Source: an uncultured Bacteroidales bacterium
GTDB taxonomy: Bacteria > Bacteroidota > Bacteroidia > Bacteroidales > UBA932
Direction: 5' to 3'
Length of the DNA: 6,138 bases
NCBI GenBank assembly: GCA_947305045.1
Contig: CAMZCW010000140.1
Coordinates: 1 to 6,138, forward strand
Within the stretch, counting starts at the first letter, position 1. Each line of letters opens with the position of its first letter. Shown piece by piece: positions 1 to 6,138 of the stretch. A program made the position numbers and the translations under genes. The notes beneath the pieces are model-generated. The model was given only the letters and a program-made list of their open reading frames with translations. It had not been told where the DNA came from and searched no databases.

Positions 1-153
1 CAGACCGTCCGCGACCTCTGGCGCCAGAAGGATATGGGCAAGACCATCGACAAGGAGCGTTGGGAGGTCAGCGTCCCCGCCCACGGCTGCGTCCTCTACC
101 GCCTCAGCCCCGGCGTCACCGGCGAGAAACTCGAGGGCCTCTACCGGCAGTAA
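1..153 (+). CDS. GH27 alpha-galactosidase-like protein, C-terminal end (5' part outside window)
   Basis: This is the last 50 codons of a gene that begins before the window, read in frame 1 to a TAA stop at 151-153. The peptide contains DLWRQKD, then RWEVSVPAHGCVLYRLSPGV, and ends KLEGLYRQ. The intact GH27 enzyme at 3133-4734 ends with the same pattern (DLWRQKD, RWETEVASHGVVFLRLSPGV), so this is the C-terminal beta-sandwich tail of a paralogue; no catalytic residue is visible. Third codon positions are almost all G or C (47 of 50), against 38 of 52 in the matching stretch of the intact paralogue, which suggests a different history or expression level. The gene converges on araD with only 15 bp between the stop codons. 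The family call rests on the paralogue match; substrate specificity cannot be judged from this fragment. Confidence 0.85.
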   Translation, partial: QTVRDLWRQKDMGKTIDKERWEVSVPAHGCVLYRLSPGVTGEKLEGLYRQ

Positions 154-168
154 TTGCCTGGCGGCACC

Positions 169-849
169 CTACTGCCCGTAGCGGGCGCCGGGGCCGTGTT
201 TACGGAAGAAATGGATGTCTTCCAGGGACTTGTTGCAGGATGCGGATGGGTTAATCTGGAGGGTGAGGAAAGCCATCTTGGCAATCTCCTCCAGGACCGA
301 TGCGTGAAATGCGGCCTCTTCTGGAGACTTTCCCCATGTGAACGGACCGTGGTTCCTGACCAAGGCCGCGGGAGTGTGCGCAGGGTCCAGACCCTGGAAA
401 CGCCTGACTATTGCGATACCTGTCTCCTTCTCGTATTCCCCGGCAAGTTGTTCCTCAGTTAAATCATCCGTACACGGCACAGGGCCACGAAAATAATCGG
501 CGTGCGTGGTTCCCAGGCACGGGATGTCCAATCCTGCCTGGGCCCACGCTGTGGCGTATGTGGAGTGCGTGTGGACGATACCGCCGATTTCCGGGAAGGC
601 CTTGTACAAAGCCAGGTGCGCAGGCGTGTCCGAAGATGGCTTCAGATGCCCGCCCATGACTTTTCCATCCAAATCCACCAGCACCATATCCTCCTCAGTC
701 ATAGTCTCATAAGGTACTCCGCTGGGCTTTATCACGACTACACCCCGATCCCTGTCAATCCCGGACGCATTACCCCATGTATGAGTTACCAACCCGCTAC
801 GTAACAGCTCGAGATTGGCATTGAGAACGCTTCTTTTCAAATCTTCCAT
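169..849 (-). CDS. araD: L-ribulose-5-phosphate 4-epimerase (AraD, class II aldolase family)
   Basis: This cytoplasmic enzyme interconverts L-ribulose 5-phosphate and D-xylulose 5-phosphate, the last step that feeds L-arabinose into the pentose phosphate pathway. The 226-residue protein is close to the usual length (E. coli AraD has 231) and aligns end to end from memory: MEDLKRSVLNANLELLRSGLV, TWGNASGIDRDRG, IKPSG, KPSSDTPAHLALY, GGIVHTHSTYATAWAQAG, GTTHADYF, RNHGPFTWGK and a final RKHGPGARYGQ. The expected metal ligands are present (D74, H93, H95, H167), as are the catalytic pair corresponding to E. coli D120 and Y229 (here D118 and Y224). It therefore looks active. The start is supported by the MEDLK N-terminus and a GAGGA-like stretch just upstream. 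It lies 20 bp after a short chimeric ORF (870-1121), so the two are probably one transcript. No araA or araB is in the window. Related epimerases of other pentulose phosphates or L-fuculose-phosphate aldolases are less likely, given the close match to AraD. Confidence 0.93.
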   Translation of the reverse strand: MEDLKRSVLNANLELLRSGLVTHTWGNASGIDRDRGVVVIKPSGVPYETMTEEDMVLVDLDGKVMGGHLKPSSDTPAHLALYKAFPEIGGIVHTHSTYATAWAQAGLDIPCLGTTHADYFRGPVPCTDDLTEEQLAGEYEKETGIAIVRRFQGLDPAHTPAALVRNHGPFTWGKSPEEAAFHASVLEEIAKMAFLTLQINPSASCNKSLEDIHFFRKHGPGARYGQ

Positions 850-869
850 ATCCTCAGTACTTTACGACA

Positions 870-1121
870 TCATAAAAAATCAGTGGTGATCCAGGTGAAG
901 CCGTTGGCTTTCACTTCTTCCGGGGGCATGGAGCCGTGCAGTTTGCTGGAATTAAGGACCACCTGTGCATCAGGGCAGATACGCAGGACTTCCTTCAGGC
1001 CTTCCACGCTGAAGGATACGAAGGTCACCTGCATCTCATCCCCCTCACGGAGGCGCGGACGCACCCCCTCCTCCATCATCTCAGGAGTGACAAATGCGTC
1101 CGCTGCACAGATTATTTTCAT
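870..1121 (-). pseudogene. Chimeric small ORF: 2-hydroxyacid dehydrogenase-like start joined to GDPD-like end
   Basis: This open frame of 83 codons has no internal stop but does not read as one known protein. Residues 1 to about 30 (MKIICAADAFVTPEMMEEGV, then RPRLREGDEM) resemble the N-terminus of D-2-hydroxyacid dehydrogenases of the phosphoglycerate dehydrogenase type. From about residue 31 (VTFVSFSVEGLKEVLRICPD, then PPEEVKANG and WITTDFL) it resembles C-terminal motifs of glycerophosphodiester phosphodiesterases, where an xSFs element, a Pda element and a final ITTDxP motif are typical. Neither part has a full domain: the NAD-binding fold and the GDPD catalytic residues are absent. I infer that a deletion removed most of one or more genes and fused the ends in frame, with a join near 1030. 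It is the first gene of the operon ending with araD, and its start codon has only a weak AGG upstream. The N-terminal assignment is more secure than the C-terminal one; a genuine small protein is the alternative. Confidence 0.5.
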
Positions 1122-1231
1122 TGCCTGGTGGTTTATACCGCAATGTACGAAAAATTATTGAAGTCTGGTGCTGAAAAATGTACCATTGGCGACAGTGGCC
1201 ACCTGCGGGTGCATTCTGCGGTTTTTCGGAA

Positions 1232-1249
1232 ATATTTACTATATTTACA
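1232..1249. repeat. 9-bp tandem direct repeat in A/T-rich upstream region
   Basis: ATATTTACT (1232-1240) is followed directly by ATATTTACA (1241-1249). The second copy contains TATATTTA, which resembles a Bacteroides -7 box (TAnnTTTG) except at the last base, but no good TTTG lies 19-21 bp upstream. This could be the remnant of the promoter or a regulator site of the gene that once began at 1315, or simply A/T-rich chance. Confidence 0.4.
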
Positions 1250-1258
1250 TGCTAAACA

Positions 1259-1285
1259 TGTGCGCGCTCAAGCGGCGCGCCCACA
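1259..1285 (+). other. GC-rich hairpin upstream of the fusion ORF
   Basis: TGTG (1259-1262) pairs with CACA (1282-1285) and CGCGC (1263-1267) with GCGCG (1275-1279), leaving a two-base CC bulge and a 7-base loop. The nine base pairs stand out in an otherwise A/T-rich segment. No T-run follows, so it is not a standard intrinsic terminator. If the fusion ORF at 1315 is transcribed, this would be a structured leader. Confidence 0.4.
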
Positions 1286-1314
1286 TACGGACACGCGTAA
1301 AGAACGATAACCAA

Positions 1315-1404
1315 ATGAATCGCAGAGACTTTCTAAAGACAGGAGGGGCCGCAAGATGCGCTGGCATCACCGAAGACAAACTCGAGGGATTCTACCGGTA
1401 TTAG
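1315..1404 (+). pseudogene. Deletion scar: RRDFLK oxidoreductase start fused in frame to GH27 end
   Basis: This 29-codon ORF starts MNRRDFLKTGGAA, matching the Tat-signal N-termini of the oxidoreductases at 1660 (MDRRDFLKAGGIAA) and 5906 (MKRRDFLKASGAA), and ends GITEDKLEGFYRY then stop, matching the GH27 tail at 1-153 (GVTGEKLEGLYRQ then stop). It therefore keeps about 13 codons from the first gene of an oxidoreductase/GH27 pair and about 13 from the end of the second, with a short join near RCA. A deletion of roughly 3 kb, judged from the intact pair, would explain it. The reading frame can be extended upstream to 1168, but that stretch resembles nothing, and the RRDFLK homology fixes the start at 1315. 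The product would be an orphan half signal peptide and is unlikely to be functional. The C-terminal part is closer to the left-hand paralogue than to the intact enzyme at 3133-4734. A metagenome assembly join is an alternative to a real deletion. Confidence 0.8.
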
Positions 1405-1425
1405 CCCTTACATCCAACATAAGAC

Positions 1426-1531
1426 ACCCCTACTGCCGTTAATCGTGCACCCGCTTGCATGATTAACGGCATTTTCGACCTGTTTTGACGTTAATGGTCC
1501 ATCGGCCGGCACCATTAACGACAGCAGGGGT
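1426..1531. repeat. 106-bp structured element with four alternating copies of a 15-mer
   Basis: Four copies of a unit close to TGNCGTTAATSRTGC alternate in orientation: 1434-1448 (+), 1457-1471 (-), 1486-1500 (+), 1509-1523 (-). Copies 1 and 2 form a 16-bp stem (1434-1449 with 1456-1471, one G-T pair, 6-base loop). Copies 3 and 4 form a 13-bp stem with one mismatch (1486-1498 with 1511-1523, 12-base loop). The ends also pair: ACCCCTACTGCCGTTAA (1426-1442) against TTAACGACAGCAGGGGT (1515-1531), 15 of 17 bases, an alternative to the inner stems. It begins 21 bp after the fusion ORF. The first hairpin is followed by ATTTTC, so it might end transcription, but this would not explain the second pair. 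A REP-like or MITE-like non-coding element fits best; paired regulator sites are another option. No target-site duplication is evident. Confidence 0.75.
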
Positions 1532-1580
1532 TAGTAAAAACCGTTAAAAGGACAAAAGCGGCAACGTCAGGAGAAAATCC

Positions 1581-1612
1581 TTTGGTTTTTACATAAAATC
1601 CCCGTATCTTCG
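1581..1612 (+). promoter_or_regulatory. Bacteroides-type promoter of the oxidoreductase/GH27 operon
   Basis: A perfect -33 element TTTG (1581-1584) is followed after exactly 20 bp by TATCTTCG (1605-1612), one base off the -7 consensus TAnnTTTG. The predicted start of transcription is near 1617, giving a leader of about 43 bases before the ATG at 1660. The same arrangement recurs at 5759-5790. Confidence 0.75.
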
Positions 1613-1619
1613 CAAACGA

Positions 1620-1635
1620 TTTGAATCGTTTCAAA
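1620..1635. promoter_or_regulatory. LacI-family operator (copy 1)
   Basis: TTTGAATCGTTTCAAA is a 16-bp palindrome with one mismatched pair and a central CG, the form bound by LacI/GalR-type repressors. It lies at the predicted transcription start, where a bound repressor would block initiation. An identical 16-mer sits at 5798-5813. Here it overlaps a second palindrome, AAACGAT-TTGA-ATCGTTT (1614-1631), so the site may bind in two registers. The regulator encoded at 4731-5735 is the obvious candidate. Confidence 0.72.
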
Positions 1636-1659
1636 AAAATCAAATACATTTCTTAAAGT

Positions 1660-3129
1660 ATGGACAGAAGAGACTTTCTCAAGGCTGGCGGGATTGCAGC
1701 CACGGCAGCGCTCGTACCCGGGTTTGCTGCTTCTTGCACAAAAGGACAGACGTTCAGGGATTTTGTTGTCAAAGACAGCTACCAGGCACAGGTGGTGGTG
1801 GTTGGAGGAGGGCCTTCAGGCGTGGCGGCGGCTCTGGCTGCGGCGAGGGCAGGTATGAAAACAATCCTGATTGAATCCGGTTCCTGCCTGGGAGGAATGG
1901 CCACACGGGGCCTTGTGGAGCCTTTTATGACTTGCTACGACACCACCGGAGAGCAGATGATTATCAAGGGTATCTTCGAAGAAATCGTGAACAATCTCGT
2001 AGAGAACGGAGGAGCCATTCATCCCAAGGAGGTAAGGTGGGAAACGCCCTACACAGCATGGATGAAACTCGGCCATGACCATGAGACCCCTTTTGACCCG
2101 GAAGTACTGAAGTTCGTGCTTGACACAATGGTCCTGCAAGCCGGAATTAAAGTCCTGTACCATACAACGTTCGTGAAATCCGTCGTAAAGGGAGACAAAA
2201 TAGAGAAGCTTGTCCTGCTCACAAAGAGGGGGCTCGAATCGGTCAAGGCTGACTTCGTGATAGATACGACCGGCGACGGCGACGTTGCCGCTACTGCCGG
2301 AGTTCCGTTCACAATAGGAAACGGGAAGGGCAAAGTGCAGCCGTGCACCCTCTTTATGAGGCTGAACAACATAGAGTCCGACAAACTCATAAAAGACGTG
2401 GAATCCCACCTTCCGGAGTTCAAGAGAGTGAACGGAGTGAGTTACAGAGCCCTGTTCTGGTATGTGGAGCAAGCCGAGAACGCCGGTGAATGGGATATAG
2501 AAAGGAAGTCCGTCAATCTCCACAGATGCGTCAAAGGCGACGAGTGGTCCGTAAATGTTACGAGAATCCTTGATGTGGACGCACTTGACCCGGAGAGTCT
2601 GACCGCAGGCGAGATTGAGGGAAGACGCCAGGTGCAGGAAGTGTTCAAGTTCTTTAAGAAATATGTTCCGGGTTGCAAGAATGCTACACTCATGAAAACC
2701 GCTGATACTCTGGGCATAAGGGAATCTAGACATATAGAAGGAGAGTTCCTGCTGCAGGCCGACGACCTCCTCAACGGAGTAGTCCCTGAGGACAGCATAC
2801 TTGTGGCATCGAACTCGATTGACGTGCACGGAGGCCAGGGCGACACGAATACAACCAACTACACCCTCATGAAACAGGGAAGGTGGTATGGCGTCCCGTA
2901 CCGTTGCCTTGTTCCCAAGGGTATCAGGAACCTTCTCGTTGCCGGCAGGCCTATTTCTGCAACCAGCGAGGCCGTGGGAGCGGTCAGGGTTATGCCGCCT
3001 TGTATGGCGATGGGCCAGGCTGCCGGTATAGCCGCAGCATTCGCCGTACGGAACGCCGCTGCCGCTAAAGACGTTGACATTGACTCGCTCAGGAAAGAAA
3101 TCGTAAAACAGGGAGGATTCCTCGGATAA
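1660..3129 (+). CDS. Exported FAD-dependent oxidoreductase (Tat signal, probable lipoprotein)
   Basis: A 489-residue flavoprotein of the FAD_oxidored type (PF12831-like). The N-terminus has a twin-arginine motif (RRDFLK, residues 3-8), a hydrophobic stretch and an AASC lipobox-like site at C26, so the folded, FAD-loaded enzyme is probably exported by Tat and lipid-anchored facing the periplasm. The FAD-binding Rossmann motif is VVVVGGGPSGVAAALAAARA (glycines at 49, 50, 51 and 54), with E72 of LIES placed to hold the FAD ribose, followed by GGMATRG (78-84). DTTGDGD (202-208) and the C-terminal VAGRP (427-431) and MGQAAG (451-456) complete the family signature. Such proteins are often annotated as FAD-dependent oxidoreductase or, loosely, xanthan lyase; the substrate is not known. 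It is the first gene of an operon with the GH27 enzyme 3 bp downstream, which suggests they act on the same glycoside. The leader carries a promoter and LacI-type operator. The start is supported by the Tat motif and by the parallel start at 5906. Confidence 0.9.
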   Translation: MDRRDFLKAGGIAATAALVPGFAASCTKGQTFRDFVVKDSYQAQVVVVGGGPSGVAAALAAARAGMKTILIESGSCLGGMATRGLVEPFMTCYDTTGEQMIIKGIFEEIVNNLVENGGAIHPKEVRWETPYTAWMKLGHDHETPFDPEVLKFVLDTMVLQAGIKVLYHTTFVKSVVKGDKIEKLVLLTKRGLESVKADFVIDTTGDGDVAATAGVPFTIGNGKGKVQPCTLFMRLNNIESDKLIKDVESHLPEFKRVNGVSYRALFWYVEQAENAGEWDIERKSVNLHRCVKGDEWSVNVTRILDVDALDPESLTAGEIEGRRQVQEVFKFFKKYVPGCKNATLMKTADTLGIRESRHIEGEFLLQADDLLNGVVPEDSILVASNSIDVHGGQGDTNTTNYTLMKQGRWYGVPYRCLVPKGIRNLLVAGRPISATSEAVGAVRVMPPCMAMGQAAGIAAAFAVRNAAAAKDVDIDSLRKEIVKQGGFLG

Positions 3130-3132
3130 GAT

Positions 3133-4734
3133 ATGAAAAGAATACTAACCGCCATTGCGGCAGCCCTGATGCTGGCCGCGGTCCCCTCAACAGGCCAGGA
3201 CAACTCCCAGTTCATCCTCACCCCCAAGGCTCCTGAAACCCCGCACATCAACGGACCCAAGGTATATGGTGCTCACCCGCAGGTGGACTTCCTCTACAAA
3301 GTGCCGGCTACCGGCGTGAGACCGATGACTTTCAGCGCCAAAGGGCTTCCGAAGGGCCTTTCAATCGACTACCGCACAGGAATCATCTCCGGCAAGGCTA
3401 AGAAAGCCGGCGAGTATATTGTCACGCTGAAAGCCGAAAACGAGCTGGGCTCCGACACCCGGGAGTTGCGCATCGTCATAGGCGGCAAGCTCGCACTCAC
3501 ACCTCCCCTGGGATGGAACTCATGGAACTGCTGGGGAAACTCCGTCTCGCAGGAAAAGGTGATGAGCTCCGCCAACGCCCTTATAGAGAAAGGGTTGGAC
3601 CAGTACGGATGGACCTACATCAACATAGACGACGGCTGGCAGGGCCTGCGCGGCGGCAAGTACAACGCCATCCAGCCGAACAGCAAGTTCGGAGATATGA
3701 AGGAGCTGGCGGACTACCTGCACTCCAAAGGCCTCAAACTTGGCATTTACTCCGGCCCCTGGGTGGGAACCTACGCCGGCCACATCGGAACCACCTGCGA
3801 GAATGAAGACGGTAAATACTGGTGGGTAGAGCAGGGCATAGTTGACGATGTTTGGAAACTCGACCGCTCAAAACAGAAGCGTGACAGCCTCTGGTACTTC
3901 GGCGATGTTTCATTCGCAAAACAGGACGCGAAGCAATGGGCGGACTGGGGTGTCGATTACCTGAAATACGACTGGAACCCTAACGACAGGTATTACCTGC
4001 GGGATATGTACGACGCCCTCCGGGAATGCGGCAGGGACATCATTTACAGCATCTCCAACTCCTCTCCCATAGCACTCGGACCATATCTTCAGCAGTATGC
4101 CCAGTGCTGGCGCACCACCGGTGACATCCGTGACAACTGGGACAGCATCTTCAAGATAGGCTTCGGAGGCCAGGACCGCTGGGCGGGATACAAGGGCCCG
4201 GGCAACTGGCCGGACGCCGATATGCTCGTGGTGGGCAAGGTCGGCTGGGGTCCCAAGACCCACTGGACCAACCTCACGCCCGACGAACAGTACACCCACA
4301 TCACGCTCTGGAGCATACTCGCTTCCCCGCTGCTGATAGGTTGCGACATTGCCGAGATGGATGACTTCACCATCAGCCTGCTATGCAACTCCGAGGTGCT
4401 CGACGTCAACCAGGATGCGCTGGGCAAGCAGGCTTCACGCATTTACGGCGACGACACTTACGCCACGTACCTGAAGCCTCTTGAAGACGGTTCCGTGGCC
4501 ATAGCGATGTTCAATCTCTCCGACAAACCCCGCAAGATAGGTTTCATCCCTGTGAAAATCGGCCTGATCGGCGAGCAGATTGTCCACGACCTGTGGCGCC
4601 AGAAGGATATAGCCGTGATAGGGAATCATCACGACCGCTGGGAAACGGAAGTCGCCTCACACGGTGTAGTGTTCCTGCGCCTGTCCCCCGGGGTACAGGA
4701 CGTGAAGATCACCGGAATGATAAGGAGCCGCTAA
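3133..4734 (+). CDS. Secreted GH27 alpha-galactosidase-like enzyme with N-terminal Ig-like module
   Basis: A 533-residue retaining glycosidase of family GH27. Residues 1 to about 21 form a Sec signal peptide (MKRILTAIAAALMLAAVPST, then GQ), so it works in the periplasm or on the surface. Residues about 36-117 match the He_PIG-associated and He_PIG Ig-like modules often found on bacterial glycosidases (GPKVYGAHPQVDFLYKVPAT; GLPKGLSIDYRTGIISGKA). The (beta/alpha)8 catalytic domain starts at about 119 with TPPLGWNSWNCWG (G127). It includes the substrate-binding pair D166-D167 in NIDDGW, the nucleophile D280 in YLKYDWN, the acid/base D331 in WRTTGDI (aligned to human alpha-galactosidase A D170 and D231), and GPGNWPDADMLVVG. 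A beta-sandwich follows from about 430. All key residues are present, so activity is likely. GH27 contains alpha-galactosidases, alpha-N-acetylgalactosaminidases and beta-L-arabinopyranosidases; I favour the first but cannot exclude the last, given araD nearby. It is probably translationally coupled to the oxidoreductase (GGGAGGA at 3112-3118). Its stop codon overlaps that of the convergent lacI-type gene. Confidence 0.93.
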   Translation: MKRILTAIAAALMLAAVPSTGQDNSQFILTPKAPETPHINGPKVYGAHPQVDFLYKVPATGVRPMTFSAKGLPKGLSIDYRTGIISGKAKKAGEYIVTLKAENELGSDTRELRIVIGGKLALTPPLGWNSWNCWGNSVSQEKVMSSANALIEKGLDQYGWTYINIDDGWQGLRGGKYNAIQPNSKFGDMKELADYLHSKGLKLGIYSGPWVGTYAGHIGTTCENEDGKYWWVEQGIVDDVWKLDRSKQKRDSLWYFGDVSFAKQDAKQWADWGVDYLKYDWNPNDRYYLRDMYDALRECGRDIIYSISNSSPIALGPYLQQYAQCWRTTGDIRDNWDSIFKIGFGGQDRWAGYKGPGNWPDADMLVVGKVGWGPKTHWTNLTPDEQYTHITLWSILASPLLIGCDIAEMDDFTISLLCNSEVLDVNQDALGKQASRIYGDDTYATYLKPLEDGSVAIAMFNLSDKPRKIGFIPVKIGLIGEQIVHDLWRQKDIAVIGNHHDRWETEVASHGVVFLRLSPGVQDVKITGMIRSR

Positions 4735-5735
4735 CAGGATTTCGGAGCGGAAGACTCTCCGGCGATGAGCCGGGGCTCGATAATTACAGTCCTGCCCGGA
4801 ACGCCTTCAGTCATCATCTCCATAAGGATGGCGCAGGCGTTTTGGGCAGTTTCTTTTGCGCTTTGGTCAATCTGCGTGATTGACGGAGTCATAAGGGAGA
4901 ATGACTCTCCGCCGTCGAATCCCACGAGGGCCAGGTCTTCCGGAATCTTCAGGCCCAGCTTCTTCACTACCGTAACCACCTTGACTCCGAGATAGCCCTG
5001 CGGAATGATGATCGCGTCCGTCCCCCTGTCGCGGGACTCTTGTATCATCCGCATCATTTCCGCCTCATCCTGTTCGTTCACGTGTTGCACACGTGCCGTG
5101 TCACCCAGGCCAAGTTCGCGGAAATAAGCCATATAGGCATCTTCCCTGGCCGTCAGGTTTGAATAAGGGGCCTCGTTGGAAAAGACCTCGATATGTTTGT
5201 ATCCGTTTGCAAACAGATGGTCTACGGCCATTCTCATAGCCTTGTTATGGTCAAGATGCACCCTGCCTGCCTCTGCGTTGCCCTTGGGGTTACGGTTCAG
5301 GAAGACCACGGACATCCCCAGCTTGACAGCCCTTTCAATCTCCTTGGAACAGTCATCGGTCGGGGTGATCATAAGCCCTTTGACGCCGTCGGCGTGGAAA
5401 GTGTCTATCAGCCTGGCTATCTTGGATGTAAGGTTGTCGGAGCTGCTGAAAAGGACAGTGAAACCGTTCTCGTAAGCTATATCTTCAATCTGCCTCGTTA
5501 TTTCCGCAAAAAAGATGTTGGAGATATCCGGGGTAATCACCCCGATTATCTTATTGAAACCGATTCTGAGAGTAGAAGCAGCCTTGTTTGGCGTGTAATT
5601 CAACTCTTTCACCACCGCCAGGACCTTGTCTGCAGTTTTGCTTGCCACCCCTTTTCTGTTGTTCAGTACCATTGATACCGAGCCGACAGAAACTCCGGCC
5701 CTTTTAGCGACATCTTTTATGGTAATCTTCTCCAT
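4731..5735 (-). CDS. LacI/GalR-family transcriptional regulator
   Basis: A 334-residue cytoplasmic DNA-binding sensor. The helix-turn-helix covers residues 4-26 (ITIKDVAKRAGVSVGSVSMV), and the hinge helix YTPNKAASTLR (47-57) places L56 exactly where LacI inserts its minor-groove leucine into a central CG. The recognition positions equivalent to LacI 17, 18 and 22 are V, G and M. The rest is the two-lobed periplasmic-binding-protein-like effector domain (IIGVITPDISNIFFAEI; LVGFDGGESFSLMTPSITQI). I chose the Met at 5733-5735, because MEKITIKDVA is the canonical start and the extra 15 codons of the open frame (to 5780) look like A/T-rich promoter sequence. The effector is unknown, plausibly a sugar released by the GH27 enzymes. 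It is transcribed divergently from the oxidoreductase at 5906 and convergently with the GH27 gene, sharing bases 4732-4733 of their stop codons. Identical operator-like palindromes precede both adjacent oxidoreductase genes, and the second also lies upstream of this gene, so autoregulation is likely. Confidence 0.92.
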   Translation of the reverse strand: MEKITIKDVAKRAGVSVGSVSMVLNNRKGVASKTADKVLAVVKELNYTPNKAASTLRIGFNKIIGVITPDISNIFFAEITRQIEDIAYENGFTVLFSSSDNLTSKIARLIDTFHADGVKGLMITPTDDCSKEIERAVKLGMSVVFLNRNPKGNAEAGRVHLDHNKAMRMAVDHLFANGYKHIEVFSNEAPYSNLTAREDAYMAYFRELGLGDTARVQHVNEQDEAEMMRMIQESRDRGTDAIIIPQGYLGVKVVTVVKKLGLKIPEDLALVGFDGGESFSLMTPSITQIDQSAKETAQNACAILMEMMTEGVPGRTVIIEPRLIAGESSAPKSC

Positions 5736-5739
5736 TTGC

Positions 5740-5772
5740 ACAAAAATATACATAATCGCTTGAATTATCAAA
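5740..5772 (-). promoter_or_regulatory. Candidate proximal promoter for the lacI-type gene
   Basis: On the minus strand TTTG (5769-5772) and TATTTTTG (5740-5747) both match the Bacteroides consensus exactly, 21 bp apart. The start of transcription would fall at about the A of the ATG at 5735, which implies a nearly leaderless message. The segment is A/T-rich, so chance matches are possible. Confidence 0.35.
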
Positions 5773-5790
5773 AAAATCAACGTATCTTAG
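5759..5790 (+). promoter_or_regulatory. Bacteroides-type promoter of the right-hand oxidoreductase gene
   Basis: CTTG (5759-5762), 20 bp, then TATCTTAG (5783-5790): one mismatch in each element and the same spacing as the promoter at 1581-1612. The match between the two regions continues into the operator (29 of 33 bases identical between 1603-1635 and 5781-5813), which supports both as real. The predicted start is near 5795, with a leader of about 110 bases. Confidence 0.65.
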
Positions 5791-5797
5791 CAAAGAG

Positions 5798-5813
5798 TTT
5801 GAATCGTTTCAAA
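5798..5813. promoter_or_regulatory. LacI-family operator (copy 2)
   Basis: TTTGAATCGTTTCAAA is identical to copy 1 at 1620-1635 and sits at the same offset, 15 bp from the start of its -7 box. It extends to an 18-bp palindrome with flanking G and C (5797-5814). Placed between the divergent lacI-type gene and the oxidoreductase gene, it could control both directions. Confidence 0.75.
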
Positions 5814-5844
5814 CCAAGATAGCACACTTTAGACTTCGTTCAAT
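5814..5844 (-). promoter_or_regulatory. Candidate distal promoter for the lacI-type gene
   Basis: On the minus strand ATTG (5841-5844), 19 bp, then TATCTTGG (5814-5821), each one base from consensus. Transcription would start near 5809, inside the operator, giving direct autorepression and a leader of about 74 bases. This competes with the proximal candidate at 5740-5772. Confidence 0.35.
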
Positions 5845-5866
5845 TCAAGAATGTTTTGTATATTAG
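5835..5866 (+). promoter_or_regulatory. Possible second promoter for the right-hand oxidoreductase gene
   Basis: TTCG (5835-5838), 20 bp, then TATATTAG (5859-5866), each one base off consensus. It would give a leader of about 35 bases, more usual than the 110 bases from the promoter at 5759-5790, but it is not conserved before the other unit and starts well past the operator. Confidence 0.25.
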
Positions 5867-5905
5867 CGGTTCATAGACTAACAACGGCCAACACATGATT
5901 AGAAT

Positions 5906-6138
5906 ATGAAACGACGTGACTTTCTTAAAGCCAGCGGTGCCGCAGTGGCCGGAGGAGCGCTGCTCACCGGCGCCGGCAGCCTGGCCGCTTCCTGCACAAA
6001 CACATCGAATGACCTTGACTGGGGATCCACTGACGTACTGGTAGTCGGCGGAGGGCCCGCGGGCGTGTGCGCGGCTATAGCCGCCGCCCGCTGCGGGGCC
6101 AGGACCACCATAGTGGAGACCGGCAACTGCCTCGGCGG
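5906..6138 (+). CDS. Exported FAD-dependent oxidoreductase, N-terminal part (runs off window)
   Basis: The first 77 codons of a paralogue of the oxidoreductase at 1660-3129; the frame stays open to the window end. It starts with a Tat motif (KRRDFLK, residues 2-8), a hydrophobic stretch and a LAASC lipobox-like site at C30, so export by Tat and lipid anchoring are likely. The FAD-binding motif DVLVVGGGPAGVCAAIAAAR follows, then IVETGNCLGG, where the Glu should hold the FAD ribose. The order and spacing match the intact paralogue, so the same flavoprotein family is clear, but the catalytic part is not visible. By analogy a GH27 gene may follow outside the window. Control by the divergent LacI-type regulator is likely from the shared operator. 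A 4-codon ORF (5895-5909) overlaps the start codon but has no support as a real leader peptide. Confidence 0.88.
   Translation, partial: MKRRDFLKASGAAVAGGALLTGAGSLAASCTNTSNDLDWGSTDVLVVGGGPAGVCAAIAAARCGARTTIVETGNCLG

What the first reader, a model, noticed from the sequence alone, without database searches (positions are those of the whole stretch)
1315..1404. In-frame collapse of an oxidoreductase/GH27 gene pair into a 29-codon ORF
The ORF keeps the MNRRDFLKTGGAA start seen in two other genes of this window and the KLEGFYRY end seen in the left GH27 tail, with nearly everything between them gone. It is a fossil of a third copy of the two-gene module and shows that the array was once larger. 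That both native start and stop are kept in one frame is notable.
Basis: partly seen in the sequence, partly recalled or inferred. Interest (0 to 1): 0.7.

Follow-up and report, generated by a model that had tools for sequence, protein, structure and literature searches.

The report
Scar of a gene-splitting DNA insertion
A 29-codon reading frame in a gut Bacteroidales contig is a seam where the first codons of one gene meet the last codons of another, most likely left when a block of foreign DNA was inserted into a sugar-use gene cluster; it is a scar rather than a working gene.

Summary
Window 1315-1404 joins 13 codons of a Tat-signal FAD-oxidoreductase (PF12831) head to 16 codons of a GH27 tail in one frame; six tail codons (FYRLSP) are also missing at 1362/1363. 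A one-off misassembly is unlikely: database protein P0124 (4 contigs) has the same 29 residues behind an upstream stretch with two differences.

In relatives this kind of GH27 lies upstream of this kind of FAD gene; none of 13 such GH27 genes has a FAD gene directly upstream on its strand. The FAD-GH27 pair of the window (1660-4734) has another kind of GH27 tail. A collapsed third copy of that pair is therefore not what relatives suggest.

A better fit: relative G112 has one contig end with this promoter and the first three codons (97% to 1166-1323) and one headless FAD body of this class (59/61 to 6078-6138), probably one gene. In the window the two lie about 4.6 kb apart, around a block 99% identical to G001 (1445-5994). 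The ORF would be the left seam of an insertion that gave the native gene a new promoter and head at 5906. Deletion from a larger array is not excluded. Interest is modest.

The parts
1315..1353 (+). Stranded head (13 codons, MNRRDFLKTGGAA) of a SusC-linked FAD-oxidoreductase gene, FADa
   Evidence: 13/13 aa and 35/39 nt to the FAD head of L010
1354..1404 (+). Last codons of a GH27 gene, GH27b (RCA, six codons missing, GITEDKLEGFYRY, stop)
   Evidence: tail 33/42 and 34/42 nt to L007 and L033; the gap read by eye
1166..1314 (+). Native upstream region (promoter) of FADa, beginning with a REP-like repeat
   Evidence: 1166-1323 is 153/158 identical to the end of G112 contig C27
1427..1533 (.). 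REP-like hairpins; the first (about 1434-1471) is followed by TTTT and could end the transcript
   Evidence: fold z -6.2 for 1405-1545; inverted repeat I8
1660..3129 (+). FAD2, FAD-dependent oxidoreductase of the inserted block
   Evidence: PF12831 E 3e-121; 99% to L001
3133..4734 (+). GH27-2, partner of FAD2, with a different tail (GMIRSR)
   Evidence: PF16499 and PF17801
4731..5780 (-). LacI-family regulator of the block
   Evidence: PF00356 and PF13377
1620..1635 (.). Operator-like palindrome upstream of FAD2
   Evidence: exact TTTGAATCGTTTCAAA; chance mean 0.06 for all matches with up to 3 mismatches
5798..5813 (.). Same operator-like palindrome between lacI and FADb
   Evidence: exact copy
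5906..5955 (+). Donor-type head of FADb; likely zone of the right-hand crossover
   Evidence: 5781-5943 is 160/163 to G001; clear departure after about 5955
5956..6138 (+). Body of FADb (runs off the window), probably the continuation of the stranded head
   Evidence: 6078-6138 is 59/61 to the headless FAD body of G112; at most 50/61 in 13 other FAD genes. 5956-6077 has no G112 counterpart in hand
1..153 (+). End of GH27a, the resident GH27
   Evidence: PF17801 E 9.9e-8; 1-155 is 83% to G112 C27

Best explanation
The 29-codon ORF is the left seam of an inserted block. A recipient like G112 had GH27a, other genes, then a promoter and a FAD gene followed by SusC. A block of about 4.6 kb (1354 to about 5943) from a G001-like donor, running from the last codons of its GH27b through REP-like hairpins, FAD2, GH27-2 and lacI to the promoter and first 13 or so codons of its own FADb, was inserted into the recipient FAD gene at about codon 13. 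The right end joined by homologous recombination in the conserved FAD head; the left end joined with no useful homology, which stranded the old head against the GH27b tail. That is the layout of homology-facilitated illegitimate recombination, or of a circularised fragment integrated by one crossover. The native body now reads from the donor promoter with its operator, and the old promoter reads only 29 codons and a hairpin. Shown: the two halves of the ORF, the block shared with G001, the matches to G112, the gene order in relatives. Inferred: that head and body were one gene, the direction of transfer, the recombination route, the change of regulation.
For: Window 1445-5994 is 99.0% identical to G001 over 4550 bp and parts from it on both sides, while the outer parts match G112: 167-903 at 90%, 1166-1323 at 97%, 6078-6138 at 97%. 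G112 has one contig end with the promoter and first three codons (C27:1) and one headless FAD body of this class, also at a contig end (C11) and followed by SusC. FADb has the G001 upstream region and head to about 5943 (160/163), then departs inside the conserved head. In relatives GH27 of this type precedes FAD (12 distinct loci), so a head-then-tail joint is the kind made by insertion or duplication. In L010 the closest head is contiguous with a full FAD gene and SusC. FAD2 at 99% was found in L001 alone among 65 loci, the next at 72%, so the block looks like a rare accessory piece. Joint seen in other contigs.
Against: The G112 head and body are on two contigs, and C27 holds only three codons of the gene; that they are one gene is not shown. 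The body match is 61 bp. P0014 and P0029 carry the G001-type head on different bodies, and P0029 shares RTTIVETGNCLGG with the window, so FAD genes are mosaic here and the FADb body could have come otherwise. GH27a is only 83% to G112. No genome with an intact GH27b beside the block was found. One-ended illegitimate recombination is reported as orders of magnitude rarer than ordinary exchange (passage of PMC5361080) and 3e-10 per recipient in E. coli conjugation (abstract of PMC3240628).
Confidence: 0.5

Rival explanations
1. Deletion from a larger array, close to the first reader: two copies of the sulfatase-GH27-FAD-SusC cluster stood in tandem, and a deletion ran from codon 13 of FADa through SusC and further genes to the end of GH27b.
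For: Both ends of the ORF are native and in frame. Deletions are common nearby: the small ORF 870-1121 has two, and G001 has a collapsed FADb at L001:14247 and a SusC head cut at the hairpin. G001 has a FAD gene followed by a SusC head directly before the block, as such a tandem array would.
Against: Needs a second event to explain why FADb has a G112-like body behind a G001-like head. No locus in the survey shows FADa and a KLEG-tail GH27 in that order (0 of 13).
Confidence: 0.28
2. Tandem duplication inside one genome of the stretch from a GH27 tail to a FAD head, whose novel joint is the ORF, with the FAD2-GH27-2-lacI block arriving separately.
For: The order GH27a tail, FADa head, GH27b tail, FADb head fits a duplication joint.
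Against: The two tails differ (78% over 46 nt; 8 of 13 residues alike) and the upstream regions of FADa and FADb differ, so the copies would be old; the near-identity to G112 and G001 is then unexplained.
Confidence: 0.1
3. Chimera of metagenome assembly joining two species at similar FAD heads.
For: The window matches two different genomes in different parts, and both breaks of G112 lie at the FAD gene.
Against: P0124 has the same joint in 4 contigs with two residue differences, which a repeated error would hardly give. The joint itself shares no long identical stretch between its two parents.
Confidence: 0.07
4. A small gene under selection, or a functional leader peptide.
For: 0 of 29 residues differ between the window and P0124, while 2 of the 19 upstream residues do; a terminator-like hairpin follows.
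Against: With so few differences the contrast is not significant. In 400 genomes searched with 1166-1660 no hit spanned the joint; 17 genomes matched, by heads, tails or repeats alone, besides the G001 and G112 matches told elsewhere.
Confidence: 0.04

Closest known systems
Homology-facilitated illegitimate recombination (PMC3240628: abstract seen; described there for three naturally competent species and for E. coli conjugation)
   Same: One end of the block lies in sequence homologous to the target, the other end joins without useful homology; foreign DNA is trapped beside the anchor.
   Different: Here it is inferred from sequence alone; no competence or conjugation was observed, and a circular intermediate would give the same result.
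Module displacement that leaves orphan genes in Vibrio cholerae T6SS clusters (PMC5361080: abstract and passages seen)
   Same: A horizontally acquired module is placed in front of a resident gene and leaves a remnant of the old arrangement.
   Different: There whole immunity genes are kept; here only 13 codons of a gene head remain, while its body is reused.
Sulfatase-GH27-(MBL)-FAD-SusC clusters of rumen Bacteroidales
   Same: Supplies both halves of the ORF.
   Different: In these loci the GH27 precedes the FAD gene; a head-then-tail joint was not seen in the 34 pieces surveyed.

Membership tests
Product of homology-facilitated illegitimate recombination | One junction lies in sequence homologous between donor and recipient | tested here: met
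   FADb follows G001 to about 5943 and departs within the conserved FAD head
Product of homology-facilitated illegitimate recombination | The other junction lacks homology or has only a few shared bases | tested here: inconclusive
   FAD head and GH27 tail share no evident homology at 1353/1354, read by eye, but the parental sequences at the joint are not in hand
Product of homology-facilitated illegitimate recombination | The recipient without the insert has one contiguous target gene | tested here: inconclusive
   G112 has one head end and one headless body on two contigs
Product of homology-facilitated illegitimate recombination | Transfer of linear DNA by transformation or conjugation | not testable with these tools
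   needs an experiment
   0 of 13
REP elements with a RAYT-type transposase (hairpins near the seam) | Repeats flank a Y1 transposase gene | tested here: met
   G112 C27: PF01797 E 7.5e-5 just above its cut-off, repeats on both sides of the gene-bearing segment
REP elements with a RAYT-type transposase (hairpins near the seam) | Many copies across the genome | tested here: not met
   2 to 7 matches per genome in 5 genomes at one mismatch, controls 1 to 2; 6 of the 7 in G112 are on C27. A different pattern might find more

The most novel reading that the evidence does not exclude
Sugar-use clusters of rumen Bacteroidales grow by one-ended recombination at the conserved Tat-signal head of FAD-oxidoreductase genes: a donor cassette with its own regulator and promoter is placed in front of a resident FAD-SusC operon, captures it for the new LacI regulator, and leaves a stranded head as a seam. 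Orphan heads would then be a readable record of past captures.
Probability: 0.28. Interest if true: 0.5.

Novelty: new member of a known kind. Interest (0 to 1): 0.27.

Why it matters
If the insertion reading is right, this is a natural example of a regulated cassette placed in front of a resident polysaccharide-use operon in gut bacteria, with the displaced gene head still readable. It also warns against taking a short fused ORF as proof of a larger ancestral gene array.

Tried and rejected
Assembly error as the main reading: weakened by P0124 and, for the neighbouring ORF, by P0121. REP-like repeats as the cause of the seam: the join at 1353/1354 is not in such a repeat; the point where L001 parts from the window (1445) is. 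Rfam: 0 matches at gathering score. Bacteroidetes -7 motif TANNTTTG (motif recalled): 2 matches against 2.23 expected, neither at the promoters in question. Exact joint in viral contigs: 0. Frame bias: of six joins or gaps within or between coding sequences that I noted, five are in frame (FADa/GH27b, the 18-nt gap, the dehydrogenase gap in G112, dehydrogenase/GDPD, GDPD internal; the FADb collapse in G001 is not). This was counted after the fact and leaves out a one-base slip at the end of 870-1121, so it is a hint only. A search for papers holding five terms on rearranged polysaccharide utilization loci found 0; whether a case like this is in print was not searched further.

Full report
What is there. 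No whole genome is held for the window; its best match is a Bacteroidales metagenome-assembled genome (L001). Its genes are the end of a GH27 gene (GH27a, 1-153), a class II aldolase (169-849, -), a small ORF (870-1121, -), the 29-codon ORF (1315-1404), a FAD-dependent oxidoreductase (FAD2, 1660-3129), a second GH27 (GH27-2, 3133-4734), a LacI-family regulator (4731-5780, -) and the start of another FAD gene (FADb, 5906 onward).

The observation. The ORF reads MNRRDFLKTGGAA-RCA-GITEDKLEGFYRY. Its first 39 bases are a FAD head (35/39 nt and 13/13 aa to L010; best of 5000 shuffles 22/39). Its last 42 bases are a GH27 tail (33/42 to L007, 34/42 to L033; best shuffle 22/42). The sequences printed suggest by eye that the three residues between are GH27 too (the GCA of HGCAFYRLSPG) and that six codons are missing after them. 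The ORF thus seems to hold two in-frame joints, at about 1353/1354 and 1362/1363.

It is real. The 29-aa ORF was too short to search by itself. A 48-aa in-frame stretch of the window that contains it had one candidate and one hit: P0124, 48 aa, 4 contigs, with the same 29 residues and two differences before them. The neighbouring 83-aa ORF (870-1121) is itself a fusion, the head of a 2-hydroxyacid dehydrogenase with two pieces of a GDPD; its search found P0121 at 99% identity in 10 contigs, the longest 104 kb, and two weaker hits. Raw reads were not available.

Gene order in relatives. A scan of the species-genome collection with FAD2 gave 65 loci: L001 at 99%, L002 at 72%, the others at 64% or less. 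I surveyed 34 loci or contig pieces. Twelve distinct loci (L004-L009, L013, L016, L018, L023, L025, L033; L092 is the same contig stretch as L008 and was dropped) carry a GH27 with a KLEG-like tail (KLVG in L023, KLGG in L025) upstream of FAD and SusC on the same strand, with or without an MBL-fold gene or others between. The survey script called the FAD gene in 10 of the 12; in L013 and L025 its filter chose an antisense frame, but one search places the FAD match there. In L011 the GH27 was merged into a longer ORF and is not counted, nor is the GH27 of G112 (L090), which the filter also missed. A thirteenth GH27 of this type, in G001 (L074), has no FAD gene beside it. In 0 of these 13 does a FAD gene lie directly upstream on the same strand. 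FAD-GH27 neighbours on one strand occur in L001 (again as L073) and L002, with another kind of GH27 tail. So the two halves of the ORF come from a cluster type in which the tail gene stands before the head gene. A head-then-tail joint is what an insertion or duplication makes; a simple collapse of two neighbours would need the opposite order.

Two relatives, two sets of matches. G001 (contig C91, the genome of L001, MAG Tb.RUG.210) matches window 1445-5994 at 99.0% over 4550 bp and parts from it on both sides. G112 matches the outer parts: 167-903 at 90%, 1166-1323 at 97%, 1-155 at 83%, 6078-6138 at 97%; the last is 59/61 ungapped, against at most 50/61 in 13 other FAD genes. In G112 the promoter and only the first three codons lie at the very end of contig C27, and the body, from residue 59 on, at the very end of C11, followed by SusC; the next FAD gene of G112 is whole and 59% identical to the query. 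The simplest reading is one gene cut by a contig break. In the window the matching head and body lie about 4.6 kb apart with the G001-like block between them.

Best reading. A donor block from the end of GH27b to the head of FADb was inserted into the resident FAD gene near codon 13. FADb and its upstream region follow G001 to about 5943 (160/163) and clearly depart after about 5955, inside the conserved head, as homologous exchange there would leave it. The left joint shows no useful homology. This is the pattern called homology-facilitated illegitimate recombination (PMC3240628, abstract seen), which has been proposed for V. cholerae T6SS clusters, where new modules leave orphan genes behind (PMC5361080, abstract and passages seen). 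A circularised fragment integrated by one crossover gives the same layout. FADb would then read from the donor promoter, which carries an exact copy of the palindrome upstream of FAD2 (1620 and 5798), while the old promoter reads 29 codons and then a strong hairpin followed by TTTT (z -6.2 for 1405-1545). That the palindrome is the operator of this LacI protein is inference from its form and place.

Weak points. That the G112 head and body are one gene is not shown. The body match is 61 bp long. P0014 and P0029 carry the G001-type head on different bodies, and P0029 shares RTTIVETGNCLGG with the window, so FAD genes in these populations are mosaics and the FADb body could have come by another road. 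No genome with GH27b whole beside the block was found or in the 151 and 400 genomes (overlapping sets). By DNA the GH27b tail is about as close to GH27a (78%) as to L007 (33/42) and L033 (34/42); only the protein comparison favours the latter. Such recombination is reported to be rare. A deletion from a larger array stays possible.

Surroundings. Segment 167-1165 is inverted relative to G112, where the segment is flanked by inverted REP-like repeats and also holds a Y1-transposase-like gene (PF01797, E 7.5e-5) that the window lacks. A Bacteroidetes subclass of such genes is described as flanked by atypical hairpins (PMC6006769, passages seen); membership was not tested. Relatives of the transposase occur in 5 of 5 genomes searched. 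Among 25 distinct FAD-type heads in the fetched loci, 2 have an ORF under 300 aa: the collapsed FADb of L001 and a broken frame in L011; orphan heads are thus not frequent in this sample.

Verdict. A well supported scar, probably of an insertion, of modest interest.

Noticed in passing
window 870-1121 (-): An 83-aa ORF made of the head of a 2-hydroxyacid dehydrogenase and two pieces of a GDPD, joined in frame, the second gap between GGYTTCACC direct repeats; near-identical P0121 in 10 contigs. G112 holds an in-frame collapsed dehydrogenase and a whole GDPD.
   Followed up: partly
window 167-1165; L090 (G112:C27) 102-3050: This segment is inverted relative to G112, where inverted REP-like repeats flank it together with a Y1-transposase-like gene; the window has lost the transposase gene.
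   Followed up: partly
window 1427-1533: REP-like hairpins with alternating GTTAAT/ATTAAC arms; L001 parts from the window at 1445, in the loop of the first hairpin, where L001 has a cut SusC head.
   Followed up: partly
L001 14247-14473: FADb of G001 has lost nearly all of its middle, out of frame, with head and last codons kept; P0014 has the same head on a whole protein.
   Followed up: partly
window 1576-1635 and 5754-5813: A 60-nt repeat (77%) holding an exact TTTGAATCGTTTCAAA palindrome upstream of FAD2 and between lacI and FADb; likely operators of the LacI protein.
   Followed up: partly
P0014, P0029 (FAD proteins): The same G001-type head and first 70 or so residues on different bodies, a sign of mosaic FAD genes or of chimeric assemblies.
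   Followed up: no
window 870-1121, 1315-1404; L090 1692-2024; L001 14247: Five of six joins or gaps in coding sequence that I noted are in frame; counted after the fact, possibly a hint of selection against interrupted translation.
   Followed up: no
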